A DNA stretch of 64,000 nucleotides from assembly GCF_000190735.1 (NCBI RefSeq), contig NC_015177.1, positions 2,542,001 through 2,606,000 of the forward strand, read 5' to 3'. Shown piece after piece: positions 16,248-36,659 of this stretch. Positions within the stretch are counted from its first letter, which is position 1; every line of letters starts with the position of its first letter. A program made the position numbers and the translations under genes. A model generated the notes under the pieces. That model had not been told where the DNA came from. It saw nothing but the letters and a program-made list of their open reading frames with translations, and searched no databases. Origin of the DNA: Pseudopedobacter saltans DSM 12145 (lineage in GTDB: Bacteria; Bacteroidota; Bacteroidia; Sphingobacteriales; Sphingobacteriaceae).

Positions 16248-17342
16248 TTAACTCGGTATATTTATCCCCGTATAAGAAGCGATATCCATTAAAGAATTCA
16301 CCACTTCTTTATGTAACGGAATACCGTCACGCATCCTTAACTGATAAGCCTCTCTTTCAGGATCTCCCGGAATTAAAACTCCAGATGTACCTGGTCGGGG
16401 CAGCGTATTCCTCATCGTGTGAATCCACTCATCGATATTTGTTTTAAATTCGTTTTTATCTCTAAAGCCATCTATTTCCCAAGCACCAAAAAAATGGCCT
16501 ATTCCCTTTCCTACCTGTTTTTCAGGTAAAGCGGAATTTATTGCAAAGGGAACGGTAAACGGCCCCCAATTGGCTCCGCTTAATACTGCAGACAGAATAT
16601 CAACCATACTTGCCAGACAATAACCTTTATGTCCACTTCCATCTTTATCTGATCCTAATGGCAATAATGCTCCGCCATTTATCATCTCTGAAGGCATAGT
16701 TGTTGAATAACCGTTTTTATCTATACACCAGCCTTCGGGTATTTTTTCATTTTTTCTATCGGCAATCTCTACTTTACCATATGCTACTGCGCTAGAAGCT
16801 AGGTCTATAATGATAGGAGGTTCTTTATAAGCAGGAAAAGCTATTGCTAAAGGATTTGTTCCGAGCATTTTTTCGGCACCATTAAAAGGAGCTACACCTT
16901 TAGTAGTATTAGTCATTGAGAGCCCAATGATATCATCTTTCAATGCCATAACTGGATAATAACCTGCGGCTCCGTAATGGTTGGTATTGCATACACTAAC
17001 CCAGCCCGAGCCATGAAGTTTAGCTTTTTGAATAGCTATATCCATACATTTCGGACCTACTACCAATCCTAAACCATTATCTCCATCTATGGTGGCTGTA
17101 CTACTTTTTTCTCTTATGATTTTAATCTCTGGCTTCGGATTAATTTTACCGGTTCTTAAAAGGTCAAAATATGTTTTTAAACGGGCTATTCCATGCGAAT
17201 CAATCCCATGTTCGTCACTATAGGCCAGTACGTCTGCAGCAAGTATTGCATCGTCATAAGGAACATCAAAATGAACAAATACTTCTGTAGTAAACTCTCG
17301 TAATTGCGTGGATGAAAAAATTGTAAAATCCGTATTACTCAT
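16248..17342 (-). CDS. Malate/L-lactate dehydrogenase (Ldh2) family oxidoreductase
   Basis: A 364-residue cytoplasmic NAD(P)-dependent dehydrogenase of the malate/L-lactate/ureidoglycolate dehydrogenase family, which has its own non-Rossmann fold. Family landmarks include DEHGIDSHGI near residue 50, CNTNHYGAAGYY near 125, and SGHKGYCLA near 240, where the His/Lys-rich stretch forms the active site. ATG at 17342 is preferred to a TTG two codons earlier. It is the last gene of the long minus-strand carbohydrate locus, with a repeat between it and its upstream neighbour. It probably oxidises or reduces a 2-hydroxy acid derived from the sugar pathway. Confidence 0.85.
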   Translation of the reverse strand: MSNTDFTIFSSTQLREFTTEVFVHFDVPYDDAILAADVLAYSDEHGIDSHGIARLKTYFDLLRTGKINPKPEIKIIREKSSTATIDGDNGLGLVVGPKCMDIAIQKAKLHGSGWVSVCNTNHYGAAGYYPVMALKDDIIGLSMTNTTKGVAPFNGAEKMLGTNPLAIAFPAYKEPPIIIDLASSAVAYGKVEIADRKNEKIPEGWCIDKNGYSTTMPSEMINGGALLPLGSDKDGSGHKGYCLASMVDILSAVLSGANWGPFTVPFAINSALPEKQVGKGIGHFFGAWEIDGFRDKNEFKTNIDEWIHTMRNTLPRPGTSGVLIPGDPEREAYQLRMRDGIPLHKEVVNSLMDIASYTGINIPS

Positions 17343-17401
17343 ATTCAACAGAACTGTATAGAGTCAAATTAAAAAATGCAGTAGACTCGTTTATGAATAT
17401 T

Positions 17402-17466
17402 AGATTGCTTCGCAGGCTCGCAATGACACAAAATAGGAGTGTCATTGCGAGCTCGCGAAGCAATCT
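17402..17466. repeat. Dispersed GATTGCTTCGC palindrome, short form
   Basis: An almost perfect 65-base inverted repeat: agattgcttcgc and ctcgcaatgacac on one arm pair with gtgtcattgcgag and gcgaagcaatct on the other, around the loop aaaatagga. At 17508-17535 the word tcgaactcaggctattatttta is the reverse complement of the start of the 309-base unit at 14031, so a larger part of that unit is present here in inverted form. Confidence 0.85.
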
Positions 17467-17542
17467 CTACTCACTATGAAAAACTATTATTTATTATTTA
17501 GAACTATTATTTAATCGAACTCAGGCTATTATTTTATTTATC

Positions 17543-17899
17543 CTATTTCACTTCCGCTTTACTCTCTTTCTTACCCAGTTTCTCTAAAAGATCTTCTACC
17601 TTTTTAGCAGTTTCTTTACCGAATTTTTTTTCCATTTCGGTATTTTTTTCCTTCCTTAGTTTTTCTGTAGCAGCTTTTTTGGCTTCATCTGCTAAACTTT
17701 CGTTCTTTCTAACTTCTCTGATTTTAGCTTTATAATCGTCCTGTACCGCAACAATCTGATTGATAACTTCATCACTCAATTTCAGCTCCTGTTTTAAGCC
17801 CTCTTTAACTTCTGCTTTTTTCTTAGCAGCTCCGCCCTGAGCAAAAGAAGTTCCGATTAAGCATAGGCTCAATCCGATTCCTAAAAATATTTTTTTCAT
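17543..17899 (-). CDS. Small periplasmic helical protein, Spy/CpxP-like
   Basis: A 118-residue exported protein. The signal peptide ends near TSFAQ, leaving a very lysine- and glutamate-rich, almost wholly helical mature part. The segment LKLSDEVINQIVAVQDDYKAKIRE resembles the LTxxQ helices of periplasmic chaperone-like proteins of the Spy/CpxP type, but the match is weak. Three bases separate it from the upstream HbpS-like gene, so the two are co-transcribed. Function is otherwise unknown. Confidence 0.6.
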   Translation of the reverse strand: MKKIFLGIGLSLCLIGTSFAQGGAAKKKAEVKEGLKQELKLSDEVINQIVAVQDDYKAKIREVRKNESLADEAKKAATEKLRKEKNTEMEKKFGKETAKKVEDLLEKLGKKESKAEVK

Positions 17900-17902
17900 G
17901 AT

Positions 17903-18355
17903 TTATATAGTTTGTGCAGCTTCTACTGCTCGTTTTACAATTTCTAAATCCGTTTGTCCTCTAAAACCACTAAACCCGATGGATAGCATAGTTCCATCCT
18001 TTAAATAAATGGGTTGTCCTCCTTCCCAGCCTATCATATCAGGTTTCCTTATTCCATTTTCATCTTCCTGCAATTGATTGGTAAAAATCAATTGCTCATA
18101 TTCTCCGGTTTGATATCCAGTTATCCAAACTTGACTGGCCTTTAACCATGCGACTCTAAAAATATCTCTGCCCTTTATTTTATTCTCTCCAAAGATTTTT
18201 CCATGGACTGTTCCATCTCCTTCTATAATACAAACAGCAACATTTCCGTTAGCTTTCTGCCTGTCTTCCGGAATTTCCATATACTGCGGAACCATACTTT
18301 CTATATGGAAAATAATCTGCTTTACCGTGGACTCTAAAATATTTTCAATAATCAT
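17903..18355 (-). CDS. GlcG/HbpS-like (DUF336) protein
   Basis: A 150-residue protein of the Haem-degrading/GlcG-HbpS family, recognisable by the strand GNVAVCIIEGDGTVHG, the helix RDIFRVAWLKASQVWITG and the closing FSGFRGQTDLEIVKRAVEAA. Members bind haem or small cofactors and often sit beside glycolate or sugar-oxidation genes. There is no signal peptide, so it is cytoplasmic. It lies between a Gfo/Idh/MocA gene and a small exported protein gene. A role in the sugar-oxidation pathway is a guess from context. Confidence 0.75.
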   Translation of the reverse strand: MIIENILESTVKQIIFHIESMVPQYMEIPEDRQKANGNVAVCIIEGDGTVHGKIFGENKIKGRDIFRVAWLKASQVWITGYQTGEYEQLIFTNQLQEDENGIRKPDMIGWEGGQPIYLKDGTMLSIGFSGFRGQTDLEIVKRAVEAAQTI

Positions 18356-18365
18356 AACCTCTCCT

Positions 18366-18466: not shown

Positions 18467-18470
18467 ATCT

Positions 18471-19454
18471 TCAAATCATCATCCACCCGCCTTTTGCACT
18501 ACTTTCAAAAAGCTTATCTATTACCCTCATGTTAGCAACAGCATCCTTTATACTGTATTCTAAAGGTTTGTTATTTAAAACGGAATTAGAAAAACTATCA
18601 AATTGCAGTGAGTACTGATCTACGGGATTGAAAAACTTTTCTTCAACTCCATCTGGCCGATATATTTTCACGCGGCTTTGCTGATCTGGGATGGCATTGA
18701 AAGGTATTTCTATTTCTAATCTGCCCTTGTCACCAAATATATTTACCCGTTGATAAGGCATCAATTGCGTAGAGCATGTAAACGTAGAAATCCCTTTTTC
18801 AAATGTTAACATTCCCGATGTTATCACATCTGTTTTTAAATCCGGATGTCGCTGCATTTGAGCCACCACCGAAGACGGCTCTTCATCAAAAACGTGTCTG
18901 CTCAAAGAAACACAATAACAACCGATATCCATCAATCCACCACCGCCTATATCCACCTTATTTCTAATGTTATTCGGATCCTGATTGTTGTAGGAAAAGA
19001 ACGACTGTATGACTTTCACAGTCCCCAGTTCACCTTTTTTTACCAAATCTCTAGCATATATCCATTGAGGGTGAAACCGATACATAAAAGCTTCCATTAC
19101 CAATAAATTGGGATAAGCTTCTGCCGCTTTTTCTAATTTTATAGCATCTTGTTCATTTAACCCTATTGGCTTCTCACAAAGGACATGTTTACCTGCCTGC
19201 AAGGATTTAATTGTCCATTCTACGTGTAAATGATTGGGTAAAGAAATATACACCGCATCAATATCTTCATCCATTAATAATTCATGATAACTACCATAAA
19301 ATTTAGGTATATCAAATTGGTTGGCTAAAGTTTTTGCTCTTGCTATATCACTTGACCCTATCGCTACTATTTCAGCAGTATTTGCCTTTTTTATTGCCGG
19401 TAAGAGCTTTTCTCTTGCTATTTTGGATGTATTTAAAAATCCCCATCTAATCAT
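18471..19454 (-). CDS. Gfo/Idh/MocA family oxidoreductase (cytoplasmic)
   Basis: A 327-residue NAD(P)-dependent sugar oxidoreductase. The N-terminal Rossmann domain starts at once (IRWGFLNTSKIA), with the family motif CEKP (E94-K95-P96). The C-terminal alpha/beta domain has GGGGLMDIGCYC, the DIGCY form seen in glucose-fructose-oxidoreductase and dihydrodiol-dehydrogenase relatives. There is no signal peptide. It is one of three family members in this locus; they likely act on different oxidation states or sides of the membrane. Substrate unknown. Confidence 0.85.
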   Translation of the reverse strand: MIRWGFLNTSKIAREKLLPAIKKANTAEIVAIGSSDIARAKTLANQFDIPKFYGSYHELLMDEDIDAVYISLPNHLHVEWTIKSLQAGKHVLCEKPIGLNEQDAIKLEKAAEAYPNLLVMEAFMYRFHPQWIYARDLVKKGELGTVKVIQSFFSYNNQDPNNIRNKVDIGGGGLMDIGCYCVSLSRHVFDEEPSSVVAQMQRHPDLKTDVITSGMLTFEKGISTFTCSTQLMPYQRVNIFGDKGRLEIEIPFNAIPDQQSRVKIYRPDGVEEKFFNPVDQYSLQFDSFSNSVLNNKPLEYSIKDAVANMRVIDKLFESSAKGGWMMI

Positions 19455-21028: not shown

Positions 21029-22315
21029 CTAATTATTCGACTTATTCATATTCTTAGTTAAGAAATGTATGATAATCCAGGCTACGAAATAAGCACATCC
21101 ACAAACAATAAACAAAATATTGTAACCTGCAGAAATATTTCCCGCTTGTTTATAATATGCTAATAGGGATCCAACCAATAATGGAAATAATGTAGATGCG
21201 ATTGAACCCGACATTCCCCCAATACCAACCACAGAACTTACTGCATTCTTCGGTACTATGTCAGAAACGATTGTAAAAATATTTGCACTCCAGGCCTGAT
21301 GGGCAGCCGTTGCAATACTGATAATGGCTACTGCGACCCATATATTAGTAGCAAATTGTGCAAACAAGATAGGTGTTACAACTATTGCTACTATCAGCAA
21401 AGTAGTTTTACGAGCTTTTAATACGGGCCAACCTATCTTTATAAAATGAGAGGATAAATATCCACCGCCTATACTTCCAATGGTTGTTGCCGCATATACC
21501 ACTGCTAAATGAGGACTGGGTTTAGTTAAGTCTAATTGAAAAGTATCTGCAAAATACGCAGGTAGCCAGAATAAGAAAAACCACCATACGGGATCTGTCA
21601 GAACTTTACCCACAATGAAAACCCAGGTTTGCTTTAATCCAAGCAAACTCGTCCACTTTAGCTTTTCCTGTTTTTCTTCAGAAACTTCTTCAATATCACT
21701 ATGGATATAGTCGTATTCTTCTTTTGACAGACGTTTTTGTCTCGATGGAATTTCGTAATAAATGATCCAAAATATCAACCAGACAAACCCTAAGGCTCCG
21801 GTAATCCAGAAAGCTTCTTTCCAACCGTACAAACCTAAAAGCCAGGGCACCAAAAGCGGCGCTACAACTGCTCCAATACTCGTTCCTGAATTAAAGATAC
21901 CTGTAGCCAAAGCTCTTTCTTTTTTTGGGAACCACTCTGCTACGGCTTTAACACCAGCAGGAAAGTTTCCAGATTCTGCCAAACCTAATAATCCACGGGC
22001 AAAACCAAAACCTATGGTACTTTTAACCAAAGCATGCAAAATAGCCGCTATACTCCATACTACAACTGAAACAGTATAACCTATCTTCGTCCCAATTTTA
22101 TCTATCAATCCTCCGAAAATAACATATCCAAGAGCATACATTGATGCAAAACACATTACGATATAGCTATAGTCGACTTCAGTCCAATGAAATTCACTTT
22201 CTAAAGTGGGTTTTAATAAGCCTATTACCTGTCTATCAATGTAATTGATCGTTGTAGCTACAAATAACAGAAAACAGATTCCCCATCTATAATTACCTAT
22301 TTTTTTATTTTCCAT
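21029..22315 (-). CDS. MFS transporter, anion:cation symporter (hexuronate) type
   Basis: A 428-residue inner-membrane transporter with about twelve helices. The first helix region NYIDRQVIGLL, the loop GGLIDKIGTKIG, and the signature GLAESGNFPAGVKAVAEWFPKKERA are characteristic of the ACS family, which includes ExuT-type hexuronate carriers. A central cytoplasmic loop rich in Glu and Lys separates the two halves. It sits between two Gfo/Idh/MocA genes, 12 bases after the upstream one. It is the obvious uptake route for the product of the periplasmic enzymes, possibly an acidic or oxidised sugar. Confidence 0.88.
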   Translation of the reverse strand: MENKKIGNYRWGICFLLFVATTINYIDRQVIGLLKPTLESEFHWTEVDYSYIVMCFASMYALGYVIFGGLIDKIGTKIGYTVSVVVWSIAAILHALVKSTIGFGFARGLLGLAESGNFPAGVKAVAEWFPKKERALATGIFNSGTSIGAVVAPLLVPWLLGLYGWKEAFWITGALGFVWLIFWIIYYEIPSRQKRLSKEEYDYIHSDIEEVSEEKQEKLKWTSLLGLKQTWVFIVGKVLTDPVWWFFLFWLPAYFADTFQLDLTKPSPHLAVVYAATTIGSIGGGYLSSHFIKIGWPVLKARKTTLLIVAIVVTPILFAQFATNIWVAVAIISIATAAHQAWSANIFTIVSDIVPKNAVSSVVGIGGMSGSIASTLFPLLVGSLLAYYKQAGNISAGYNILFIVCGCAYFVAWIIIHFLTKNMNKSNN

Positions 22316-22327
22316 AACATTGTATGA

Positions 22328-23509
22328 TTATAATATTGTAATTTCTACCTCGGCACCGTTTCTTTCTGCGGAAACATAACCAGCATAAACTGTTGCCATA
22401 ACATCCGAAGCCAGTTTACTATTACTTTCTATAGGAGTTCCAAAAGCCGCTGATTTATAAAAAGCATCCATTTCATGCTGATAACCGTTAAACCAACCTT
22501 CGTCTGGCGACATGGAAGACCAACCTTGTTTGGTTTCTGTTTTTTCTACTACATATATGTCATTGAAATAATCGCCGTTTGGTGTGTATGCCTGAATTGC
22601 ATTATTTGGCATGATATTACAAATAGTCCTATGATTATTGGCATTAACTTCTAGTTTGTTATTAACGCCACCGAGAACCAATTCACTAGCAAAAAGATTC
22701 GCTATAGTTCCATCCTCAAAAACAATATGTAACATGGCAAAATCTTCTATATCCTTATAGGTTGTTTGAAGATGCCCCTTATCTTCATAATTATCCATTC
22801 TGGTAATGGCATGCACTCTGGAGGTTATTGTCTTGGGTCTGATAGGTTCACCGTTTTTTGCTCTTCCTTCAACATGCTTTAAATAAATTGCAGCAGTAAG
22901 CGGATGGCATCCTTTACCAATCATAGATCCTCCGCCAGAAAGCTTCCATTGCCCGTATGCCAGGGAATGAGAGCCAGAATGTGATTGTTCACCATGCATC
23001 CACAATATCTGAGCTTTTGTTTTTTCTATCACTTCCCGTTCTTTTTGTATCGCTGGTGCATAAACCCAGTTTTCAGCATACATGATTTTGCCTTTACTTT
23101 GTTTTTCGGCATCCAGCATACGTCTTAAACTTGCCAAAGTAAATTCTAAACCTTTTTCTCGTGGAAAGGTGTCACCATTGAAATTATCATCGTCCTGTCC
23201 GAAATATCCCGTTAAGGGTTTTTCTACGATGACATGTTTGTCTTTTTTTAATGCCGCAATAATAATAGGTTCATGTGTTACCGGCGGAGTGCATACATGT
23301 ATTAAATCACAATCATCTATTAACTGATCCAGATTATAATAAGGTGTGATATGTCTTTCCTGAGCAAATTTATCAAGCCCTTCTTTGGTTTTAGAAAAAA
23401 CGCCAACAATCTCTACTTTGGCACTGAATACGCGCTTTAATGCCTCATAATGGAATTTAGCTGCAAACCCCGATCCTACTATTCCTGCTTTTATGACTTT
23501 CTTCTCCAT
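22328..23509 (-). CDS. Gfo/Idh/MocA family oxidoreductase (cytoplasmic)
   Basis: A 393-residue NAD(P)-dependent oxidoreductase without signal peptide. The Rossmann motif GSGFAA (12-17) and VEKP (E96-K97-P98) are intact. A longer C-terminal domain contains GGGSMIGKGCHPLTAAIYLKH, where His may be catalytic. It lies 17 bases after the DUF1080-TIM barrel gene and 12 bases before the transporter gene, so it is certainly in the same operon. Predicted to oxidise or reduce a hydroxyl of a sugar or glycoside. Confidence 0.87.
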   Translation of the reverse strand: MEKKVIKAGIVGSGFAAKFHYEALKRVFSAKVEIVGVFSKTKEGLDKFAQERHITPYYNLDQLIDDCDLIHVCTPPVTHEPIIIAALKKDKHVIVEKPLTGYFGQDDDNFNGDTFPREKGLEFTLASLRRMLDAEKQSKGKIMYAENWVYAPAIQKEREVIEKTKAQILWMHGEQSHSGSHSLAYGQWKLSGGGSMIGKGCHPLTAAIYLKHVEGRAKNGEPIRPKTITSRVHAITRMDNYEDKGHLQTTYKDIEDFAMLHIVFEDGTIANLFASELVLGGVNNKLEVNANNHRTICNIMPNNAIQAYTPNGDYFNDIYVVEKTETKQGWSSMSPDEGWFNGYQHEMDAFYKSAAFGTPIESNSKLASDVMATVYAGYVSAERNGAEVEITIL

Positions 23510-23526: not shown

Positions 23527-25158
23527 TTAATATCTTTTATCTGTAAATTCCTGTGCAATGGCATCTTTTAGCTCTTTATGTAGTGCGGGCACTAACTTTT
23601 CTGGTTCGTAAGGTCTAAATGGAAATGGTGGTTTAGGCTGTCCTTTCATTACTTTATCCCCTAGAGTTTCTATTGGCAAATAGCCTTTATAACCACTATT
23701 GTAAACAATCCTCATTAATCGTGGCATATCTATTCGGATACGGCTCAATACCCCGAATGGGCTTTCTTTCACCTGAAAATTCACAGCATACGGCATAATT
23801 TTTTCTATATCGATATACGGATCATCAGTAATAAAATACCCGGTATCTACAATTACACCAAACCATTTAGAATCTACCATTTTCACTATTTTAATAGTTT
23901 CATCCGCGGTTTTCAGAAAATCACCATGATTCTGAATACCTATAAAAACACCTTTTTGTTCAGCATAAGCCATACACTCTTTCAAACTTGCAGTCATGTA
24001 TCGGGCAATTTCGTCCCATTTATTTTCATAACCCTCTGGTATGGGGCCAGCAAATACACGCACTACCGGTGCACCTAATTTTGCTGCTACATCTATCCAT
24101 TCTTTAACGTGTTTCACGTCTGCTGCTCTTTTTTCCGGGTCTGGATTGGCGAAGTTATTTCTAACGCCAGTTCCGCTAATTTCAATCCCTTTTTCGAAAG
24201 CATGTTTTTTCAGATCGAAAATGTATTTGTCTGAAGGTACTTTTGGATATTCAGGAAAATAATAACCGGTAAGGTCTACCGCGTCATAGCCGTGTTCCGC
24301 AGCATAATCTATCAAACCAAAAAGATCCATTTTTTTACTGCTGAACGACCTGGCAAATGAAAATGCGTTCAAACTCGTTTTTACAGCAGCATCTGTTTTC
24401 TTCTTTTCCAAATTTTGGGCATTTTTATGTAATGCCGGATAATTTTTTGAAAGGTCCTGGATTTTTATGTTTCTCCATTGTACTTCCATTGGCTTGGCAG
24501 AAGTTGTCGCATGAACTTGTAGACCTATAAAACCACTCTTAGATTTGTCATCTATCAAAGAAGCCGCAAAAACACCGTTTATCCAGGTGTATATTCTATA
24601 TCCCGATGCTTCTATTCTTAAATGGTTCCATTGTTTAGGTTTAAAAGCATTTCTTGCCTCTTCATTATGGGTTAAATCAGCAAGCCAACCTCTACGTTTT
24701 TCATCGTAAATACCCCCTGTCCAACTTCTTGGTGCTGTTCCGGAGGCTATTTTCTCTCCTTTCGCATTATAATTTGCAGGCTCCTTTGAATATAGTTCTC
24801 TCGACGGATCTATTTCTACCTGATAGCCAAAAACTATTCCGTCTCTATAATTGGGATCTTGAGTGCTTCGGAATTGTATTCCTGAATTAAGCTCATCATC
24901 CACCTTAAATTCTAACTCTAAAATAAAATCAGAATAAGTCTTTTCTGTTGCCAGAAAACTATTGGGAGAATCAGTAACGGAAGTGCCAACGATTGCTCCG
25001 TTTTTCACTTTATAAATTGCTTTTCCCTGTACTTGCTTCCAGCCATTCAGGGTCTTTCCGTCAAAAAGATTTTCCCAGGGAATCGCATCCTGTGCTATTC
25101 CTGATTTGGAAGCCAATATTAAAAAAGCTCCTAAAAAAAACATGATACTCTTTTTCAT
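23527..25158 (-). CDS. Exported fusion of DUF1080 (3-keto-disaccharide hydrolase) and sugar-isomerase-like TIM barrel
   Basis: A 543-residue exported protein (signal peptide to about residue 22, IAQD). Residues 27-235 form a DUF1080 beta-sandwich (ENLFDGKTLNGWK at the start, GFIGLQVHA near the end). After a short linker, residues 260-540 are a xylose-isomerase-like barrel with IGIQNHGDFL (Q409-N410-H411), VIVDTGYF and LPIETLG. DUF1080 members cleave 3-keto-glycosides, and some isomerase-like barrels perform the related elimination or hydration steps. A fusion would couple both. The barrel is closely similar to the next three genes upstream, so the fusion arose within this paralogue array. It lies 17 bases before an oxidoreductase gene. 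Confidence 0.87.
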   Translation of the reverse strand: MKKSIMFFLGAFLILASKSGIAQDAIPWENLFDGKTLNGWKQVQGKAIYKVKNGAIVGTSVTDSPNSFLATEKTYSDFILELEFKVDDELNSGIQFRSTQDPNYRDGIVFGYQVEIDPSRELYSKEPANYNAKGEKIASGTAPRSWTGGIYDEKRRGWLADLTHNEEARNAFKPKQWNHLRIEASGYRIYTWINGVFAASLIDDKSKSGFIGLQVHATTSAKPMEVQWRNIKIQDLSKNYPALHKNAQNLEKKKTDAAVKTSLNAFSFARSFSSKKMDLFGLIDYAAEHGYDAVDLTGYYFPEYPKVPSDKYIFDLKKHAFEKGIEISGTGVRNNFANPDPEKRAADVKHVKEWIDVAAKLGAPVVRVFAGPIPEGYENKWDEIARYMTASLKECMAYAEQKGVFIGIQNHGDFLKTADETIKIVKMVDSKWFGVIVDTGYFITDDPYIDIEKIMPYAVNFQVKESPFGVLSRIRIDMPRLMRIVYNSGYKGYLPIETLGDKVMKGQPKPPFPFRPYEPEKLVPALHKELKDAIAQEFTDKRY

Positions 25159-25180: not shown

Positions 25181-26200
25181 TTATTTTCCGAATTTTTGAA
25201 TTTGTGCAGCCTTTACTTCTTTCATAAAAGCAGGAAGTACTGTAAATGGATCCCAGGAGTTCTTTTCACTTGATGCAGCAATTCCTGTAGCTTGTCTCTT
25301 AGCTTTATTTCCGCCAGCTGGCGATAAAATTTCTATTGGTAAATAACCTCTGTAATTGGTTCGCTCCATGATATCCATGATACGAGGAAGATCGATTTTG
25401 ACTTTGCTTGCTGCCCCAAACACGCTTAGTTTCAACTGAAAGTTTACTGCATAGGGCATTGTCTTTTCGATGTCGATATAGGGGTCTTCTGTTAAGAAAT
25501 ATCCAGAGTCTACAATTACTCCAAACCAATCGGAATTTACTTTTTTAACCAGGCTAATGGTTTGTTCTGCTGTCTTTAAGAAATCTCCATGATTTTGAAC
25601 TCCTATTAAAACCCCTCTTAACTTTCCATATTCTGCACATTCACGCATACTGGCAGCCATATAGTTTTCAATCTCTGCTCTTCTATTCTCGTACCCTTCA
25701 GGTATTGGACCGGCGAATATGCGGACAACAGGTGCTCCTAACTTTACAGCCACATCTATCCACTCTTTAACATGCTTCACATCGGCAGCTCTTTTTGCGG
25801 GATCCGGATCTGCGAAATTGTTTCTAACACCTGTACCCGTGATATCTAAGCCCAGTCTGAATGCATACTTTTTAATATCGTTGATATATTCATCGCTTGG
25901 CAGATTAGGGTAACCTGGAAAATAATATCCGGTTAGATCTACCCCATCAAAATCATGTTGCGCCGCCCAGTCCATTAACTGGAACATCGTCATTCCTTCT
26001 CCTCTCCCCCTAACTTTATCCATCAAAGGTTTGGTAAACGAGTAAGCGTTTAAACTAATTTTTACAGAAGGTTTCTTTACGATATTTCCCTGAAATACCG
26101 TTTGTCCTATGGTAGAAAGACTTGCTCCTGTTAATATTAATGCTAATAATCCCCTATAGCAACCTCTTTTGAAGGCACTTCTCTTGAAATATGTTTCCAT
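25181..26200 (-). CDS. Exported sugar phosphate isomerase/epimerase-like TIM barrel, paralogue 3
   Basis: A 339-residue member of the xylose-isomerase-like barrel superfamily, with an unusually long basic N terminus (METYFKRSAFKRG) before the hydrophobic signal segment ending near IGQ. Conserved barrel motifs include DLTGYYFPGYP, GTGVRNNFADPDP, VQNHGDF (Q202-N203-H204), VIVDSGYF and LPIEIL. The position usually occupied by a metal-binding Glu before N-H is Gln, as in all four paralogues. It is 22 bases from the fusion gene downstream and 18 from paralogue 2 upstream. Despite the family name, an exported location argues against a phosphorylated substrate. Confidence 0.83.
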   Translation of the reverse strand: METYFKRSAFKRGCYRGLLALILTGASLSTIGQTVFQGNIVKKPSVKISLNAYSFTKPLMDKVRGRGEGMTMFQLMDWAAQHDFDGVDLTGYYFPGYPNLPSDEYINDIKKYAFRLGLDITGTGVRNNFADPDPAKRAADVKHVKEWIDVAVKLGAPVVRIFAGPIPEGYENRRAEIENYMAASMRECAEYGKLRGVLIGVQNHGDFLKTAEQTISLVKKVNSDWFGVIVDSGYFLTEDPYIDIEKTMPYAVNFQLKLSVFGAASKVKIDLPRIMDIMERTNYRGYLPIEILSPAGGNKAKRQATGIAASSEKNSWDPFTVLPAFMKEVKAAQIQKFGK

Positions 26201-26218: not shown

Positions 26219-27157
26219 TTATTGATATACTTTGTTGATTGCTGTTTTTAGATCTTTTAAAAATGGTGGCACCTTTTTATAGGCGTCGTAAGGGATATCC
26301 GGAACGGGTCTTGGTTCTCCTTTAATTTCCAGGGTTTCGATAGGCAAATAGCCCCTATAGCCACTTTCTTTTACAATTTGCAATAGCTTATTTAAATCTG
26401 TCCTGATTGGACTTCTGGGTCCGAAAGGACTTTCTTTTACCTGAAAATTCACAGCGTAAGGCATTACCTTTGCAATATCCTGATAGGGATCTTTAGTTAG
26501 GAAATATCCGGTATCTACTATTGTTCCGAACCATTTTGAATTCACTCCTTTTACTACCCTGATTACCTGATCTGCGGTTTGTAAAAAGTCCCCATGATTC
26601 TGAACACCTACCAGTACTCCTTTTTTTTCGCCATACTTTGCACATTCCGTCAAAGCTTCTATTAGATATTTTTCTACAACATCTCTTTTGTTTTCGTAAC
26701 CTTTGGGAATAGGCCCTGAAAATACCCTAATTACCGGTGCACCTAATTTTTCCGCTACATCAATCCAGTTTTTCACCAATTGGATATCTTCGGCTCTTTT
26801 CTTTGGATCAGGATTGGTAAAATCGTTTTTCACTCCTGTACCACTTATATCCAAACCTAAAAGAAACGCCCTCTTTTTTATTTTGTTAATATATTCGTCA
26901 CTTGGAATATTTGGATATCCAGGAAAGAAATATGCTGTAATATCTATTGCATCAAATCCCGCAGAAGCAGAATAGTCAATAATATTTTCTAATGTGGCTG
27001 ATTTATCGACTGTTAATACTTTATTGAAAGAATACAAGTTAAGACTGGTTTTCACTTTAGAAGATACACCGTCTACTTTTAATGGTTGTGCAATGGTGCT
27101 TTTAAGTCCCAAAAGACACAACGTTAATGCTATTGAACTGCTGATTATTTTCTTCAC
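26219..27157 (-). CDS. Exported sugar phosphate isomerase/epimerase-like TIM barrel, paralogue 2
   Basis: A 312-residue exported barrel protein, signal peptide ending near TIAQP. Motifs: DITAYFFPGYP, GTGVKNDFTNPDP, GVQNHGDF (Q186-N187-H188), TIVDTGYF (D215) and LPIETLE (E274). The strongly conserved pocket across paralogues suggests a shared reaction on related substrates. It lies 7 bases from paralogue 1 upstream and 18 from paralogue 3 downstream, both on the same strand. Confidence 0.83.
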   Translation of the reverse strand: MKKIISSSIALTLCLLGLKSTIAQPLKVDGVSSKVKTSLNLYSFNKVLTVDKSATLENIIDYSASAGFDAIDITAYFFPGYPNIPSDEYINKIKKRAFLLGLDISGTGVKNDFTNPDPKKRAEDIQLVKNWIDVAEKLGAPVIRVFSGPIPKGYENKRDVVEKYLIEALTECAKYGEKKGVLVGVQNHGDFLQTADQVIRVVKGVNSKWFGTIVDTGYFLTKDPYQDIAKVMPYAVNFQVKESPFGPRSPIRTDLNKLLQIVKESGYRGYLPIETLEIKGEPRPVPDIPYDAYKKVPPFLKDLKTAINKVYQ

Positions 27158-27164
27158 GTTATTT

Positions 27165-28085
27165 TTATTTAATAGCTTTTTTTACTTGTTGATAAAAATT
27201 TGGTACCGCCTGATACGGATTATAACCCGCAGCAGCCGCTCTCCGCTTTGGTGCAATAGTCTCCAATACTATGTTTCCATTGTAATTATATTTCTTTAAG
27301 ATTGCACTTATTTTATTCAGATCTATTGCTTCAGGATCATTAGGCCGTTGAATGTTTTCCTTCAACAAAAAGTTAAATGCATAAGGCATTACTTTATCTA
27401 TTTCAGAATATGCATCGCCAACTAAAAAATATCCGGTATCTACTAATACACCAAAGGATTTAGAATTAACTTTCTTAACCAGATTAATTGTCTGATCCGC
27501 AGTTTGTAAAAAATCACCGTGATTTTGGACAACCAAACGTACCCCTTTCTTTTGAGCATATTCTGCACAAATACGCATGCTTTTCACCATTTGCTCAGTA
27601 AACTTCTCGCGCTCTTTTTCCTGCTCTTCTGATAGTGCTGCTCCCGAAAAAACACGCACCACCGGAGAACCCAACTTTACTGCTACGTCAATCCAGTCCT
27701 TTACCAGGTTAATATCTTCATTTAATTTAACCTGATCTGTAGTAGCAAAATCATTTCTAACTCCTAAGCTCACTATCGGAAGTTTTAGCTTTCCCGCTTC
27801 ATGTTTAATTTGATTAATTTCTTCGTCAGTTGGTACTTTAGGATAGGAAGGAAAAAAATAGCCTGTAATACTCACCGCATCAAATTGGTTATCAGCAGCA
27901 ATTTTCAAAAAATCCATTAAGGAAATACCCTCAGCCCTTCCCTTTATTTTATCATTGAGTAACTTATTAAATGAATAAGATTCCAACGCAAAGGTTTTTA
28001 CCTGTTTACTTTGACCGGAACAGAAACTTCGTAAACAACATAATAAACCTATAATTATTACTGATTGTATGTGCTTAAATTTCAT
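27165..28085 (-). CDS. Exported sugar phosphate isomerase/epimerase-like TIM barrel, paralogue 1 (most divergent)
   Basis: A 306-residue exported barrel protein, signal peptide ending near CSGQ. It keeps SITGYFFPSYP, SLGVRNDFATTD, VVQNHGDF (Q187-N188-H189), VLVDTGYF and VLETIAPKRR, but differs from the other three at many positions. In the segment after the fourth strand, GPIP is replaced by GAALSEEQ. It may act on a different substrate or step. It begins 48 bases after the DUF1080-alginate lyase gene and is 7 bases from paralogue 2. Confidence 0.82.
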   Translation of the reverse strand: MKFKHIQSVIIIGLLCCLRSFCSGQSKQVKTFALESYSFNKLLNDKIKGRAEGISLMDFLKIAADNQFDAVSITGYFFPSYPKVPTDEEINQIKHEAGKLKLPIVSLGVRNDFATTDQVKLNEDINLVKDWIDVAVKLGSPVVRVFSGAALSEEQEKEREKFTEQMVKSMRICAEYAQKKGVRLVVQNHGDFLQTADQTINLVKKVNSKSFGVLVDTGYFLVGDAYSEIDKVMPYAFNFLLKENIQRPNDPEAIDLNKISAILKKYNYNGNIVLETIAPKRRAAAAGYNPYQAVPNFYQQVKKAIK

Positions 28086-32368: not shown

Positions 32369-32379
32369 TTTTGTTCATC

Positions 32380-35337
32380 TTATAAGCCAAACCTTAAACC
32401 TAACATGTATTCTCTTTGTAATGGCACAGCTCTCTGCGCATCCAATTCAGGATCTAAAGCTCCCCATTTGGTAATGGTGAACAAGTTCTTACCTGTAAAA
32501 TAGAAATCTAAAGAATTAATTTTCGCTCTGCTTAGTAGTTTTTTACCCACAGCATATGTTAACGTAATATCCTTCACCCTTACAAAGTCTGCACTTTCGT
32601 AAACACTTGGTGTGATACCTTTACCCAGGTACCTGGTCGCCTGATTACTATTAGACCAGAAACTGTTAATAGGATTTTCCGGTGTCCAGAATTCTCGGAC
32701 AATCAGGTAATTACGATCTTTGTATGGATTCGCCTTGATCGCTCCAACTTTTCCATACATAAATACAGACAGTCCAAATTGTTTGTATTTAAAATTATTT
32801 GTAAAACCCCATGTAAAGTTAGGTTCCTGATCGCCTAACAGCTGTCTGTCTCCCGGGTCATACACTCCATTCTGATTATAATCGTCATATTTTGCATAAC
32901 CAGGTTTTGCGCCATATTTAGTTGCTTCAGTCGCTTCATCCATTTGCCATACACCTATAAATTTATAATCAAAATTCGTTTTGATAGGTTGACCTATAAA
33001 CCAACCATTAGCAATATCATCTTTACCATCACCATATAAATCCACAATCTTGGTTTTTATAAAGGCAAAGTTCAGATTAGAATTCCAAGAGAAAGACTTT
33101 TTAGTAATGTTGTTTGAATTCACCATAAATTCAATCCCATCGTTCTGTGTTTTTCCAATATTCTGGAATACACTATTCACCCCATGCACTGCTGATATTG
33201 CTCTTTTCAACAACAGATCGGAAGTTTTATTTCTGTAAACATTGATTTCTCCGGTAATCCTGGAATTTAATATTCCAAAGTCCAAACCTATATTTAATGC
33301 TCTGGTTGTTTCCCATCCCAGATTAGCTGTTCCCAAAGTTGCAGGAAGATAACCCGGAGCCATTGTAGTTCCATCAACGTAATCCCCTCCACCCAATTGC
33401 GAAAGCGTTTGATAAGGGCTGATTGCCTGATTGCCATTTTCACCGTAAGACACTCTCAACTTCAAATTATTTACAGTTTGTTTCGCACCGGCAAAAAAAG
33501 CCTCATTCATGATATTCCATCCTAACGCCACTGAAGAGAATACGCCATATTTTTTGTTCTCTCCAAAGCCCGAGAATCCATCCCTACGAACAGTCCCTGT
33601 AAACAAATAGCGACTGTCATATGAATAATTCAATCTAAACATTTGCGAAATAAGAGCAGTTTTCAAATAAGAATAAGAAGGAACAATCTTACTTGCCTGA
33701 GTTATTCCGTAATAAGAAAGGAAATCATTGGCAAATCCCTCTCCATTTAATGTGGCGATTTTATTTTCCTTACCCTCGAATGAATAAAGTCCAGTCAAAA
33801 ATAAACTGTGCTTCGCAAAATCCCTTTTGTAGGAAACTACATTCTCTACCGTGTATGAAAATTTTTGCCCTGCATTGGTTTCACTTTCGCCCTTTAAACT
33901 TCCGCTCTTACCTGTATTGGAACCTCTATACCAGTTTTTTTCCGACGATTCATATTGCAAACCAGTATTCAATCTATAAGACAAGCCTTTCACCTGAGGA
34001 ATAGTGATATTTACATAATTCATTGTAGAAGCATTATATCTAACTTTCAAATCGTCGTACAACAAGTTTTCTATCGGATTAATCTTCCTTGGATCATCTG
34101 CAATTGGCTTAATATTAACGCTACCATCCGGATTAAAAGGAACTGACAAGGGTGACTTATTGAATAAATCGATGTAGGACGGAGATGCTCCACTATTATT
34201 GATTTTCCCCATCATATTACTGCTTCCAATCGTCAACCAATCGGTTACATTAGAAGTTACATTGATACGGGCGTTACCTCTTTTATATTGGTCATTAATT
34301 ACTATACCATTTGTTCCCAAATAAGAAAGACTCGCCGAATAAGAAGTTTTTTCACTCCCCCCTGAAATGGACAAATTATGTTGCTGACTATTTCCTGATT
34401 TTGTAATCAGATCTTTCCATGACCAGTCTCTCCAGGAACCTGAATTGTATACGTCAAGCTCCGATTGGGTCATAGCCGGATCATCATCGGTTCCCGTATT
34501 TAAGGTATTCTTTTTAAATTGATAATATTGTTCGCCATCCATAAACTTTGGAAAGTTTGCAACTTCCTGAAGCGCATAAAAAGCATTGTATTTTAACGAA
34601 ACTTTTCCCTTCGTACCTTTTTTACTTTGGATAAGAATAACCCCATTTGCAGCTCTGGATCCGTATATCGCAGCGGAACTTGCATCTTTTAAAATCTCAA
34701 TACTTTCGACTTCATTGGGATTAATATCTGACAGGCTCCCGTTAAATGCAATACCATCTAAAATAATCAAAGGATCGTTACTTGCACTTATAGAACTTCT
34801 CCCCCTTATGAGCATAACGGCTCCGCTCTCTGGATTAGAGCCCGCTTCAGTCGCAGAGACATTTAAACCTGCTGCGGCACCTTGTATAAGCTGTACAACA
34901 TCTGTTCGAACCATATTCTCAATCCTATCTTTTGGTATTGAAGTTACCGCCCCTGTTACATCGCTTTTTTTCTGTGTTCCATATCCAACTACAACAACTT
35001 CATCTAAATCTTTATTGGCAACAGACATATTTACATTAATAACCGCATTGCTTCCTACCGTTATCTCCTTATCTTCAAAACCCAGATACTTGAAAACCAA
35101 TACAGATCCATTATTCGCTTTAATCTCATAATGGCCATTAACATTTGAAATAGCACTAGCTGAAGAACCTTTCACCTTTACATTCACTCCAGGCAAAACT
35201 TCTCCTTTGTCGTCTTTTATTGTTCCGGAAACAGAAGATGCCTGTTGTTTCTGCGCATGAATAGGCAACGAAATGGATAATAAGACCATCCAAAGCAAAC
35301 ATCTCGAGAATACAATCTTATGAAAATCAGATTTCAT
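32380..35337 (-). CDS. susC: SusC/RagA-family TonB-dependent outer-membrane transporter
   Basis: A 985-residue outer-membrane receptor. Signal peptide 1-29; a carboxypeptidase-regulatory-like domain (34-112, GTIKDDKGEVLPGVNVKVKG); then VVVGYGTQKKSDVTGAV and the plug domain, with DPLIILDGIAF and IEILKDASSAAIYGSRAANGVI, the standard SusC plug signature. The remainder is a 22-strand-type barrel ending in MLGLRFGL. There is no N-terminal sigma/anti-sigma interaction domain. It is the first gene after lacI, with a 16-base palindromic operator 64 bases upstream of the ATG. It imports the oligosaccharide handled by the rest of the locus. Confidence 0.95.
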   Translation of the reverse strand: MKSDFHKIVFSRCLLWMVLLSISLPIHAQKQQASSVSGTIKDDKGEVLPGVNVKVKGSSASAISNVNGHYEIKANNGSVLVFKYLGFEDKEITVGSNAVINVNMSVANKDLDEVVVVGYGTQKKSDVTGAVTSIPKDRIENMVRTDVVQLIQGAAAGLNVSATEAGSNPESGAVMLIRGRSSISASNDPLIILDGIAFNGSLSDINPNEVESIEILKDASSAAIYGSRAANGVILIQSKKGTKGKVSLKYNAFYALQEVANFPKFMDGEQYYQFKKNTLNTGTDDDPAMTQSELDVYNSGSWRDWSWKDLITKSGNSQQHNLSISGGSEKTSYSASLSYLGTNGIVINDQYKRGNARINVTSNVTDWLTIGSSNMMGKINNSGASPSYIDLFNKSPLSVPFNPDGSVNIKPIADDPRKINPIENLLYDDLKVRYNASTMNYVNITIPQVKGLSYRLNTGLQYESSEKNWYRGSNTGKSGSLKGESETNAGQKFSYTVENVVSYKRDFAKHSLFLTGLYSFEGKENKIATLNGEGFANDFLSYYGITQASKIVPSYSYLKTALISQMFRLNYSYDSRYLFTGTVRRDGFSGFGENKKYGVFSSVALGWNIMNEAFFAGAKQTVNNLKLRVSYGENGNQAISPYQTLSQLGGGDYVDGTTMAPGYLPATLGTANLGWETTRALNIGLDFGILNSRITGEINVYRNKTSDLLLKRAISAVHGVNSVFQNIGKTQNDGIEFMVNSNNITKKSFSWNSNLNFAFIKTKIVDLYGDGKDDIANGWFIGQPIKTNFDYKFIGVWQMDEATEATKYGAKPGYAKYDDYNQNGVYDPGDRQLLGDQEPNFTWGFTNNFKYKQFGLSVFMYGKVGAIKANPYKDRNYLIVREFWTPENPINSFWSNSNQATRYLGKGITPSVYESADFVRVKDITLTYAVGKKLLSRAKINSLDFYFTGKNLFTITKWGALDPELDAQRAVPLQREYMLGLRFGL

Positions 35338-35400
35338 GATGGATACGTTTAAGTTTATAATATTAATAATTGGTGCTGTTTGATATTAAAATCAAATAAC

Positions 35401-35416
35401 CTGCAAACGTTTGCAG
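35401..35416. promoter_or_regulatory. LacI-family operator upstream of susC
   Basis: Perfect 16-base palindrome CTGCAAACGTTTGCAG with the central CG typical of LacI-family sites. On the minus strand a TTTG (35393-35396) that could be the -33 element lies directly beside it. It matches the site at 36660-36675 exactly and that at 36531-36542 in its 12-base core. Confidence 0.85.
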
Positions 35417-35438
35417 ATTACATAGGTAAAAAATAAAT

Positions 35439-35481
35439 ATTTGTTTTCCAAAAAAAATTAAATGTTTTTTGGAAAACAAAT
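35439..35481 (-). terminator. Strong inverted repeat, probable lacI terminator
   Basis: Perfect 17-base arms (35439-35455 and 35465-35481) with a 9-base loop; arm sequence ATTTGTTTTCCAAAAAA. On the minus strand it lies 26 bases beyond the lacI stop, with A/T tracts on both sides, so it would end lacI transcription before the susC operator. A regulatory palindrome is an alternative. Confidence 0.65.
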
Positions 35482-35506
35482 AGACAAACAGTTGACTTAC
35501 AATAAA

Positions 35507-36523
35507 TTAAAAACTAGACTCTCTTTCAATCAATTCCACAGGCGTGGTTAAAGAGATAAAACTTCTTCCTGTTTTAACCTTATTATCAAGAAGATCCATC
35601 ATCAGAATTGCAGCTTGCTCTCCCATTTCATGAGGAAATTGCTCCACCGAGCTTATTTGAGGGCAACTAATGGTTGTACGATTATCGTTTGAATATCCCA
35701 CTAACTTAAGATCTTTTGGAATATTCAAATTCTTACTTTTTGCGTATTGAATTACAGCTAAAGCAGCAGAATCATTACTCGTAAAAAAAGCATCCGGTTT
35801 ATATCTGTCATATAGTTCGCTTACAGATTTAAGTGCATTCTCCTGACTCAATTCATGAAAATGTGCCATTCCTTCTTCAAAGCACTTCTTTTTCTTTACC
35901 AGAGCTTCTTTATATCCATTAAAACGTTCGACATACTGATTGCAAGATAAAGGCCCTCCTATATGCACTATTCTCTCACATCCCTTATCTATTAGATGCA
36001 TAGTAGATTGATACGCTCCAAAAAAATCATCTCCCTTGATTTTATGTGCCTGAAAATTAGTAGGCACTCTGTCATAGAAAATAATAGGCACCCCTTCTTT
36101 CTGATATTCAGAGAAATGCGAGAAGTCTTCTGTGTAAATACTACAGGAAACAATAAGCCCATCTACCCTGGAGGCATTTAATATTTGCACAAGGTTACGT
36201 TCTATTTCCGGCGATTCATTACTTTGACAGATAATCACATTGTAATTAAACTCTTGCAGCTTATTCTGAATAGCAGTTATTACTGCTGACTGAAATGACA
36301 TTGATATCCTGGGAACAATCAACCCAATTGTTTTTGACCGACTATTTCTTAACGCTGCAGCCAATGCATTATAGCGATAACCTAACTTTGTTGCCGCTTC
36401 TTTTACTTTTTGCTTGGTATCTTCACTTATGTGCGGATGGTCACTTAAGGCCCGTGAAACACTGGAAACCGACATACCTACCTCAGCAGCAATATCTTTG
36501 ATTGTTACAGATTGAATTTTCAT
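35507..36523 (-). CDS. LacI-family transcriptional regulator
   Basis: A 338-residue repressor. The N-terminal HTH (about 6-30: VTIKDIAAEVGMSVSSVSRAL) and hinge helix (YNALAAALR) are followed by a periplasmic-binding-like effector domain starting GLIVPRIS. ATG at 36523 is preferred over a TTG 21 bases upstream, which would put the operator inside the coding region. Its own start is preceded by the palindrome at 36531-36542, indicating autoregulation. The same palindrome lies before susC and before the divergent T9SS protein gene, making this the likely local regulator. The effector is probably a sugar released by the pathway. Confidence 0.92.
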   Translation of the reverse strand: MKIQSVTIKDIAAEVGMSVSSVSRALSDHPHISEDTKQKVKEAATKLGYRYNALAAALRNSRSKTIGLIVPRISMSFQSAVITAIQNKLQEFNYNVIICQSNESPEIERNLVQILNASRVDGLIVSCSIYTEDFSHFSEYQKEGVPIIFYDRVPTNFQAHKIKGDDFFGAYQSTMHLIDKGCERIVHIGGPLSCNQYVERFNGYKEALVKKKKCFEEGMAHFHELSQENALKSVSELYDRYKPDAFFTSNDSAALAVIQYAKSKNLNIPKDLKLVGYSNDNRTTISCPQISSVEQFPHEMGEQAAILMMDLLDNKVKTGRSFISLTTPVELIERESSF

Positions 36524-36530
36524 ATAATTC

Positions 36531-36542
36531 GCAAACGTTTGC
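36531..36542. promoter_or_regulatory. LacI-family operator at the lacI start
   Basis: Perfect 12-base palindrome GCAAACGTTTGC ending eight bases before the lacI ATG (minus strand). The flanking bases differ from the 16-base sites, so binding is probably weaker, as suits autoregulation. Confidence 0.8.
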
Positions 36543-36659
36543 AAATTATAAATTTTTTATCTTATATTCGATATAATTTATTCTGAAAATTAACACCGAT
36601 TATAATAATCTTTAGTAAATAATGGTAAAAACAGCAAAATCATAAAAACAACAACATAT

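What the first reader, a model, noticed from the sequence alone, without database searches (positions are those of the whole stretch)
16248..36544. Expanded, mostly exported candidate non-hydrolytic glycoside-cleavage locus
Seen: one minus-strand run holds SusC, SusD, two DUF1080-containing fusions, four isomerase-like barrels with signal peptides, three Gfo/Idh/MocA oxidoreductases (one a lipoprotein), an MFS carrier and a LacI regulator. Known: in Bacteroidota such as B. thetaiotaomicron and in some proteobacteria, glycosides can be oxidised at C3 by Gfo/Idh/MocA enzymes, after which DUF1080 and isomerase-like proteins release the aglycone by elimination and rehydrate the product. Inference: this locus is an enlarged version in which most cleavage steps occur outside the cytoplasm, and it lacks an ordinary glycoside hydrolase within the operon. 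Substrate and division of labour among the four barrels are unknown.
Basis: partly seen in the sequence, partly recalled or inferred. Interest (0 to 1): 0.85.

Follow-up and report, generated by a model that had tools for sequence, protein, structure and literature searches.

The report
Sugar-cleaving gene cluster with lyase fusion
This is a regulated set of bacterial genes that probably imports a sugar polymer and breaks it by oxidation and elimination instead of ordinary hydrolysis; it joins two known kinds of sugar-breaking machinery in one locus, but its substrate and chemistry have not been shown.

Summary
In detail: SusC, SusD, two DUF1080 fusions, four barrel domains, three Gfo/Idh/MocA proteins, an MFS carrier and a LacI gene form one minus-strand run.

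Relatives in Bacteroidales, Flavobacteriaceae and Pseudobacter keep the core. Beyond Bacteroidota the same lyase domain, DUF1080 and barrel lie side by side: 21 of 79 barrel-seeded loci hold all three, although the lyase is rare. The barrels keep the catalytic His of known 3-keto-glycoside eliminases but have Gln at two metal-ligand positions; one paralogue lineage has Leu at one. A palindrome lies upstream of SusC, LacI and a divergent T9SS-type secreted protein.

Best reading: a LacI-controlled PUL that cleaves, outside the cytoplasm, a probably uronate-containing glycan by lyase action plus C3 oxidation and elimination. It is not a BT2156-BT2159 orthologue: the dehydrogenase models miss their cut-offs. 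Substrate and oxidase are unknown. New variant of a known kind.

The parts
35507..36544 (-). LacI-family regulator; likely true start ATG at 36523
   Evidence: PF00356, PF13377; start inferred from the translation
35401..35416 (.). operator-like perfect palindrome CTGCAAACGTTTGCAG, 63 nt upstream of the SusC start
36530..36543 (.). one-mismatch copy of the palindrome core, 6 nt upstream of the likely LacI start
36660..36675 (.). second perfect palindrome, 36 nt upstream of the likely start of the T9SS-type gene
36712..37935 (+). secreted protein with T9SS C-terminal sorting domain; probable member of the same regulon (ORF listed from TTG at 36670)
   Evidence: PF18962; palindrome upstream
32380..35337 (-). 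SusC-type TonB-dependent receptor
   Evidence: PF07715, PF13715
30587..32368 (-). SusD-type protein
   Evidence: PF07980, PF14322
28134..30488 (-). F2: signal-like N terminus, N-terminal domain of ~95 aa, DUF1080 (residues 125-316), linker, alginate-lyase-like toroid (about 425-784)
   Evidence: PF06439 115.3 bits, PF05426 41.8 bits; alignment A2; model
27165..28085 (-). barrel B4 (PF01261), Leu at the beta7 ligand position
26219..27157 (-). barrel B3 (PF01261)
25181..26200 (-). barrel B2 (PF01261)
23527..25158 (-). F1: DUF1080 (28-234) fused to barrel B1 (283-507)
22328..23509 (-). Gfo3, Gfo/Idh/MocA, no signal sequence seen
21029..22315 (-). MFS carrier
   Evidence: PF07690
19587..20954 (-). 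Gfo2, lipobox at Cys18, PF16490 C-terminal domain; nucleotide loop reads DPGHFHAAL
18471..19454 (-). Gfo1, Gfo/Idh/MocA
17903..18355 (-). HbpS-like protein, below the Pfam cut-off (23.1 vs 25 bits) but with relatives in L051 and L163
17543..17899 (-). 118-aa protein with signal-like N terminus, 35% identical to one in L051
16248..17348 (-). Ldh_2 family (malate/L-lactate dehydrogenase) oxidoreductase, 71% identical in L051
   Evidence: PF02615

Best explanation
A LacI-controlled polysaccharide utilization locus. SusC/SusD take in a glycan, probably one with uronic acid residues. Outside the cytoplasm the F2 toroid domain cuts it by beta-elimination, and the exported DUF1080 domains and four TIM barrels then cleave C3-oxidised oligosaccharides by elimination and rehydrate the product. 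The MFS carrier brings the product in, where Gfo1, Gfo3 and Ldh_2 reduce keto groups. Shown here: gene content, families, recurrence of the core in other genomes, the palindrome, residue states. Inferred: all chemistry, the compartment, the substrate class, and that Gfo2 (or a Gfo encoded elsewhere) is the C3 oxidase. At least three of the four barrels are old paralogues with counterparts in other orders, so they are probably not redundant; B4 may serve another step, such as hydration.
For: Families. Core shared with L048, L049, L050, L051, L054, L089. Catalytic His (H188 in B3) 78 of 78, Asp215 78 of 78, Glu274 77 of 77 rows with a letter, and the same in 17 of 17 loci that one search had missed; mapped on AtOGE/PuCGE through. 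In the F1 model the four ligand-position residues (409, 438, 462, 497) lie in or right after strands 405-409, 433-438, 458-463 and 493-496. Fold match to DgpB-C and YcjR. Toroid: PF05426, model pTM 0.91, best solved match alginate lyase A1-III. By tblastn 25 of 79 barrel-seeded loci hold the lyase, 24 of these within 1.3 kb of a barrel match, and 21 of 79 hold lyase, DUF1080 and barrel, although the lyase is rare in general. In lyase-seeded sampling the two close Verrucomicrobiota hits G634 and G672 have barrel and DUF1080 beside it. Palindrome core: 2 exact copies in 4.64 Mb, both here.
Against: No activity is known for any of these proteins. The barrels have Gln at the beta5 ligand (78 of 78) and Gln or Leu at the beta7 ligand (73 and 4 of 77); in AtOGE the H189A change at that last position cut activity below 0.1%. 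The toroid reads ENGNKE, in 20 of 20 rows, opposite the NNH motif of A1-III, and the Tyr246 position is variable, so a working uronate lyase is not assured. No C3-oxidase model passes its cut-off. 54 of the 79 barrel loci show no lyase in the DNA held; of 12 whole genomes searched two have none and a third (L055) only a weak match. In G351 the DUF1080-lyase gene has no barrel in the 19.5 kb read. L048 and L054 lack MFS, Gfo2 and Ldh_2 matches in the DNA held. No gene of the locus was named by Pfam as acting on unsaturated uronates.
Confidence: 0.5

Rival explanations
1. An ordinary lyase PUL: F2 is a polysaccharide lyase whose DUF1080 domain only binds glycan, and the barrels are sugar isomerases or epimerases acting on released (unsaturated or keto) sugars. 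No 3-keto-glycoside elimination takes place.
For: Closest solved barrels include epimerases and the isomerase Art22 with similar or better scores than DgpB-C; DUF1080 and CBM66 matches overlap in a published annotation; two metal ligands of eliminases are absent.
Against: The eliminase catalytic His is invariant; DUF1080 beside barrels recurs in several phyla and DUF1080-barrel fusions recur; Pfam names PF06439 as 3-keto-disaccharide hydrolase and BT2157 is cited as a 3-ketotrehalose hydrolase.
Confidence: 0.22
2. One reading: an enlarged BT2156-BT2159 type system acting on glycosides, with the alginate-lyase-like domain a non-catalytic binding module.
For: The toroid lacks the usual PL5 base residues by alignment; DUF1080 and barrels are present.
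Against: The toroid is well conserved across phyla (58-79% identity to the window over 16 other rows; 104 columns at least 95% conserved), which suits an active site better than a binding role; no BT_2158/BT_2159 equivalog in the locus.
Confidence: 0.2
3. A C-glycoside or plant-glycoside deglycosylation locus in which small aglycone glycosides, not polysaccharides, are the substrate.
For: Barrels resemble DgpB-C structurally and PuCGE by profile.
Against: SusC/SusD and an alginate-lyase-like domain point to a polymer. PuCGE is a heterodimer; no second-subunit relative was looked for here.
Confidence: 0.08

Closest known systems
Bacteroides thetaiotaomicron BT2156-BT2159 glycoside/disaccharide C3-oxidation system
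   Same: A DUF1080 protein (BT2157) and a Gfo-type dehydrogenase; cleavage outside the cytoplasm (BT2158 periplasmic). That BT2156 is a barrel is recalled.
   Different: No BT_2158 or BT_2159 equivalog; extra SusCD, alginate-lyase-like fusion, four barrels, Ldh_2 and a lipobox Gfo with PF16490.
AtOGE and PuCGE/DgpB-C 3-keto-glycoside beta-eliminases (TIM barrels)
   Same: Fold, catalytic His two residues after the beta5 ligand position, Asp at beta6, Glu at beta8. AtOGE itself (8BVK) was not among the 50 matches listed.
   Different: Gln in place of the beta5 His/Glu and of the beta7 His; signal-like N termini; one barrel fused to DUF1080.
Polysaccharide lyases PL5 (A1-III) and PL38 (BoPL38)
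   Same: Pfam PF05426 above cut-off and toroid fold.
   Different: About 17% identity to A1-III; His of the NNH motif and the catalytic Tyr not kept by a weak alignment; fused behind DUF1080.
Caulobacter lacABC-DUF1080 lactose pathway
   Same: A DUF1080 protein with putative signal peptide proposed to cleave 3'-ketolactose in the periplasm (PMC9007349 passages).
   Different: Its dehydrogenase is membrane-bound LacABC; LacABC was not looked for in this genome.

Membership tests
BT2156-BT2159 type 3-keto-glycoside system | BT_2158-family glycoside 3-dehydrogenase (NF058561, cut-off 750 bits) | tested here: not met
   Gfo1 44.7, Gfo3 23.5, Gfo2 no hit at 0.001; best in the whole genome 462.7, elsewhere; none of 14 control genomes passed the cut-off either
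BT2156-BT2159 type 3-keto-glycoside system | BT_2159-family disaccharide 3-dehydrogenase (NF058563, cut-off 650 bits) | tested here: not met
   Gfo1 25.6 bits, no hit at 0.001 for Gfo2 and Gfo3
BT2156-BT2159 type 3-keto-glycoside system | DUF1080 (PF06439) protein | tested here: met
   152.1 and 115.3 bits against cut-off 26.8
BT2156-BT2159 type 3-keto-glycoside system | PF01261 barrel protein (that BT2156 is one is recalled) | tested here: met
   94.6-112.5 bits against 31.1
BT2156-BT2159 type 3-keto-glycoside system | Activity on 3-keto-glycosides | not testable with these tools
   needs assay
3-keto-glycoside beta-eliminase (AtOGE/PuCGE) | Catalytic His two residues after the beta5 ligand | tested here: met
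   H188, 78 of 78 rows and 17 of 17 further loci; aligned with PuCGE; role of His134/His143 from PMC10628242 passages. One of the two scan patterns demanded QNHGDF, so conservation among fetched rows is partly built in
3-keto-glycoside beta-eliminase (AtOGE/PuCGE) | Metal ligands: beta5 His/Glu, beta6 Asp, beta7 His, beta8 Glu | tested here: not met
   Gln, Asp, Gln or Leu, Glu; by sequence alignment, no metal data
PL5/PL38 alginate-lyase clan | Pfam PF05426 over cut-off and toroid fold | tested here: met
   41.8 vs 22.2 bits; Foldseek 1qaz E 6.9e-07, TMq 0.59, rmsd 6.7
PL5/PL38 alginate-lyase clan | Catalytic His and Tyr | tested here: inconclusive
   Not kept by profile alignment, but that alignment is weak (3.7 bits for the first stretch); RDxxH kept in 17 of 17 rows that reach it in frame
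Polysaccharide utilization locus (PUL) | Adjacent SusC and SusD | tested here: met
LacI-regulated operon | Palindromic operator upstream of the operon | tested here: met
   (sequence only, no binding data)

The most novel reading that the evidence does not exclude
The toroid is the founding part of a new polysaccharide lyase family with a different catalytic set (invariant ENGNKE and RDxxH), and the fusion plus four barrels with a Gln-substituted metal site form one pathway in which a uronate polymer is first cut by lyase chemistry and the fragments are then taken apart by C3 oxidation and elimination, each barrel lineage handling a different linkage or step. The module {toroid, DUF1080, QNHGD barrel} has moved between phyla as a unit.
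Probability: 0.3. Interest if true: 0.77.

Novelty: new variant of a known kind. Interest (0 to 1): 0.58.

Why it matters
It would join two non-hydrolytic ways of breaking glycosidic bonds (uronate beta-elimination and 3-keto-glycoside elimination) in one polypeptide and one regulon. The toroid domain is a candidate for a new lyase family, the barrels raise a sharp question on metal use in 3-keto-glycoside eliminases, and the set of old barrel paralogues gives ready material for working out which enzyme eliminates and which hydrates.

Tried and rejected
Considered and set aside: an ordinary glycoside hydrolase in the run (none over cut-off); recent tandem duplication of the barrels (rejected for B1, B2 and B4, whose window copies group with copies from other orders at 95-98% SH-aLRT; B3 is placed weakly and outside the group of its best pairwise matches, and B4 has a long branch that the tool flags as unsure); a wider LacI regulon (the only other near-match in the genome lies inside an ORF and the reversed control also gave one site, so probably chance); sigma-70 promoter scan (63 found, 62.2 expected, no information). 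The T9SS-type protein has no relative in L048, L049, L051, L054 or their flanks L162-L164 at E 0.001, so it is tied to the system by the palindrome alone. L051 and L127 apart, no other held locus matched the small or the T9SS-type protein beyond the window's own copies.

Weak points: most relatives are metagenome-assembled. My non-overlapping ORF picker dropped real frames: the 78 barrel rows are 4 of the window plus 74 from 62 of the 79 loci, and its first count of loci with a lyase gene (19 of 79) or DUF1080 (18 of 79) was low. A tblastn recount gave 25, 25 and 21 with all three, and the 17 missed loci were read. In one search the DUF1080 genes of G634 and G672 were missed for the same reason; one search shows them. 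Rows L071, L073 and L080 (frame shifts or cut ends) were left out of the model alignment A5 and. In one search the row own_L138 is a wrong neighbouring ORF and was not used. My notebook gives 36709 as the T9SS gene's ATG; the correct position is 36712.
Full report
The window lies in a single-contig 4.64 Mb genome. From the promoter side the order is SusC, SusD, F2, B4, B3, B2, F1, Gfo3, MFS, Gfo2, Gfo1, an HbpS-like protein, a 118-aa protein with a signal-like N terminus, and Ldh_2. Between the MFS gene and SusC the gaps are 7-98 bp; below MFS they are 74, 132, 115, 3 and 194 bp. An inverted repeat lies in the gap before Ldh_2, so co-transcription of that last gene is unsure.

Its C-terminal part matches PF05426, Alginate_lyase, at 41.8 bits (cut-off 22.2). 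An AlphaFold2 model of that part (17 rows, pLDDT 84.8, pTM 0.91) is mainly helical, and its best solved matches are alginate lyase A1-III (PL5; E 6.9e-07, TMq 0.59, rmsd 6.7, 17% identity), then BACOVA_01668, other PL5 enzymes and BoPL38. No solved sequence is close: with a 7-row profile the best E-value was 0.027.

Related loci. A scan of the genome collection with the four barrels gave 79 loci (89 relatives found, the best 80 kept). Six of them (L048 Bacteroidales, L049 Paludibacter, L050 and L089 from one Flavobacteriaceae MAG, L051 Pseudobacter, L054 Bacteroidales) have F2-like proteins carrying both domains next to barrels. L049 has four barrels, one fused to DUF1080, then Gfo3, MFS, Gfo2 and Gfo1. 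L051 has SusC, SusD, F2, Gfo3, MFS, Gfo2, the HbpS-like and small genes, Gfo1 and Ldh_2 (71% identity), but only two barrels, no DUF1080-barrel fusion and no LacI match. L048 and L054 have SusC, SusD, F2, one barrel and the fusion, but no MFS, Gfo2 or Ldh_2 match in the DNA held. So the core is shared and the rest varies.

Beyond Bacteroidota the domains mostly occur as separate neighbouring genes in Acidobacteriota and Verrucomicrobiota (for example L067, L108, L115), and as a DUF1080-lyase fusion in a Roseateles MAG (L085). By tblastn at 1e-10, 25 of the 79 loci hold the lyase domain, 25 hold DUF1080 and 21 hold both besides the barrel; in 24 of the 25 the lyase match lies within 1.3 kb of a barrel match (4.8 kb in L067). 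An earlier ORF-based count was lower (19 and 18 of 79). The other 54 loci show no lyase, some because contigs are short, others truly: of 12 whole genomes searched, two have no lyase match and L055's has only a weak one. The lyase domain is 58-79% identical to the window's over the 16 other rows aligned.

Independent sampling with the lyase domain: 2 of 395 Bacteroidota genomes had a match at E 1e-60, one of them this genome; 5 of 240 in the phylum of L115, one being the seed, and two of the other four distant; 2 of 247 in the phylum of L067, seed included, the other distant; 1 of 198 in the order of L051, the seed alone; 2 of 247 in the order of L049, seed included, the other distant and its surroundings not read. 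These sets may overlap. Of the three close non-seed hits, G634 and G672 have barrel and DUF1080 genes beside the lyase, G672 with two barrels; G351 has DUF1080 with the lyase but no barrel in the 19.5 kb read (G672 carries the stretch also held as L091). The three distant hits that I read (G733, G693, G953) have neither barrel nor DUF1080 match in 5.7, 19.9 and 14 kb, and three distant family relatives (L131-L133) sit by SusC-like genes without barrels. So the partnership belongs to the close lyase subfamily. Among 17 same-genus genomes none has a match to F2 at 1e-20, and 4 have a barrel. High identity over several phyla with rarity inside the genus suggests transfer between lineages; that is inference.

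The barrels. Published work on AtOGE and PuCGE (PMC10628242, passages read) gives the metal ligands as beta5 His132 (Glu in the CGEs), beta6 Asp163, beta7 His189 and a weak beta8 Glu233, with a catalytic His two residues after the beta5 ligand. The profile alignment with 7bvr/7exz puts barrel Q186 on the Glu, H188 on the catalytic His and Q239 on the beta7 His; that match is weak (13.6 and 11.0 bits for the two stretches). Over 78 barrel rows, H188 is kept in 78, D215 in 78, E274 in 77 of 77, Q186 in 78; position 239 is Q in 73, L in 4 and a gap in 1. The 17 loci missed there read Q, H, D, Q, E at the five positions in 17 of 17. The four Leu rows are exactly the B4 row of the window and its three relatives in L049, L050 and L089. 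One of the two scan patterns asked for QNHGDF, so the Q186/H188 figures are partly built in. In the F1 model (pLDDT 80.5, pTM 0.63; the barrel part above 90 in most blocks, the DUF1080 part lower) the ligand-position residues lie in or right after successive strands. Foldseek places F1 nearest BT3469 for the DUF1080 part (48% identity) and 4ovx, Art22, DgpB-C, epimerases and YcjR for the barrel (50 rows listed).

The tree of 78 barrels (SH-aLRT only) groups B1 with the fusion barrels of L048, L049 and L054, B2 with barrels of L049, L050, L054 and L089, and B4 with barrels of L049, L050 and L089 (95-98). B3 is placed weakly; its best pairwise match is in L048 (69%), and the L049 barrel in the corresponding place is most like B3 by BLAST (64%), but the tree does not join them. 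In L049 the order is B4-type, B3-like, B2-type, fusion, as in the window. So at least three lineages are old and kept, which argues for distinct roles. DUF1080-barrel fusions of another kind also occur beside a barrel in two same-genus genomes (L128, L130).

The oxidase question. None of the three Gfo proteins reaches the BT_2158 or BT_2159 models. Gfo2, the only one with a lipobox, has PF16490 and a nucleotide-binding loop reading DPGHFHAAL where the family norm (recalled) is GxGxxG; the loop is the same in the L049 and L051 relatives. Elsewhere the genome has a BT_2158-like protein with a twin-arginine-like N terminus (462.7 bits, below the cut-off 750), which might serve in trans. This is the weakest link in the 3-keto reading.

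Regulation. A perfect 16-bp palindrome occurs at 35401-35416 and 36660-36675, and a one-mismatch copy of its 14-bp core at 36530-36543. The core has 2 exact sites and 4 sites with at most one mismatch in the whole genome, against one site for the reversed control; the fourth lies inside an ORF that reads like a sugar kinase, between aldolase-like and uronate-isomerase-like ORFs (names by inspection, not by a model) and is probably chance. The palindromes sit upstream of SusC, of LacI itself and of a divergent T9SS-type secreted protein, which I therefore count as a probable part. No promoter was shown.

Toroid active site. In 20 of 20 rows the stretch opposite the A1-III NNH motif reads ENGNKE; distant relatives have other letters there but 11 of 11 far rows share RDxxH. 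The base residues described for BoPL38 (Y298, H243; PMC13169297, passages) and the A1-III residues mutated in solved entries (H192, Y246) have no clear counterpart, though the alignment is weak. Either the domain uses other residues or it no longer cuts; the strong conservation favours the former.

Literature. BT2158 as a periplasmic glycoside 3-dehydrogenase: PMC11300592, passages. BT2157 as 3-ketotrehalose hydrolase and DUF1080 in lactose use: PMC9007349, passages; the same paper reports that none of ten DUF1080 genes of a Pedobacter strain had a lactose phenotype. BT2158 with BT2156 or BT2157 for glucosinolates: PMC12385236, passages. Deletions of BT2157 and BT2158 had no growth defect on raffinose-family sugars: PMC11501099, passage. 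DUF1080 and xanthan: PMC5673643, passages. Four-step deglycosylation: PMC13273386, passages. PL38 substrates: PMC13027841, passages. A Nature 2024 paper on a broad alternative glycan pathway in bacteria is recalled and was not seen. In the held library 8 papers hold DUF1080, PF06439 or 3-keto-disaccharide hydrolase and 3 hold DUF1080 with polysaccharide lyase; the listings show no DUF1080-lyase fusion, but I read passages of only two of those papers (PMC9007349, PMC5673643) on DUF1080, so absence from print is not shown.

Substrate and chemistry remain open.

Noticed in passing
window 14022-14641: Near-identical tandem copies (185 nt at 99%, 96 nt at 97%) form a repeated block that overlaps a 145-aa ORF, probably spurious.
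   Followed up: partly
window 17402-17466: Inverted repeat (GAAGCAATCT ... GTCATTGCGAG) between the small exported gene and Ldh_2; it looks like a dispersed palindromic element and may separate transcripts.
   Followed up: partly
window 18405-18440: Short repetitive spacer (GAACAACGAACAAC-like) upstream of the HbpS-like gene.
   Followed up: no
L168 929-1945 (genome C1:3248603): The only operator-like near-match outside the locus lies inside a sugar-kinase-like ORF between aldolase-like and uronate-isomerase-like ORFs; probably chance, but a uronate link would fit.
   Followed up: partly
L067 5149-6090, L136 7329-8261: Glyoxalase-family (VOC) proteins with signal-like N termini lie beside the lyase or DUF1080 genes in two loci; similar ORFs by eye in L070, L081, L157 and L158.
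   Followed up: no
L048 18052-19512: Nramp-type metal transporter gene inside the Bacteroidales version of the locus (a like-looking ORF in L054), perhaps supplying metal to the enzymes.
   Followed up: no
L162 971-2383, L163 14408-15841, L164 16313-17500: T9SS-type DUF4957/DUF5123 proteins at the downstream end of the three Bacteroidales loci, directly after Gfo1 in L049 and L054; none seen in the window's run.
   Followed up: partly
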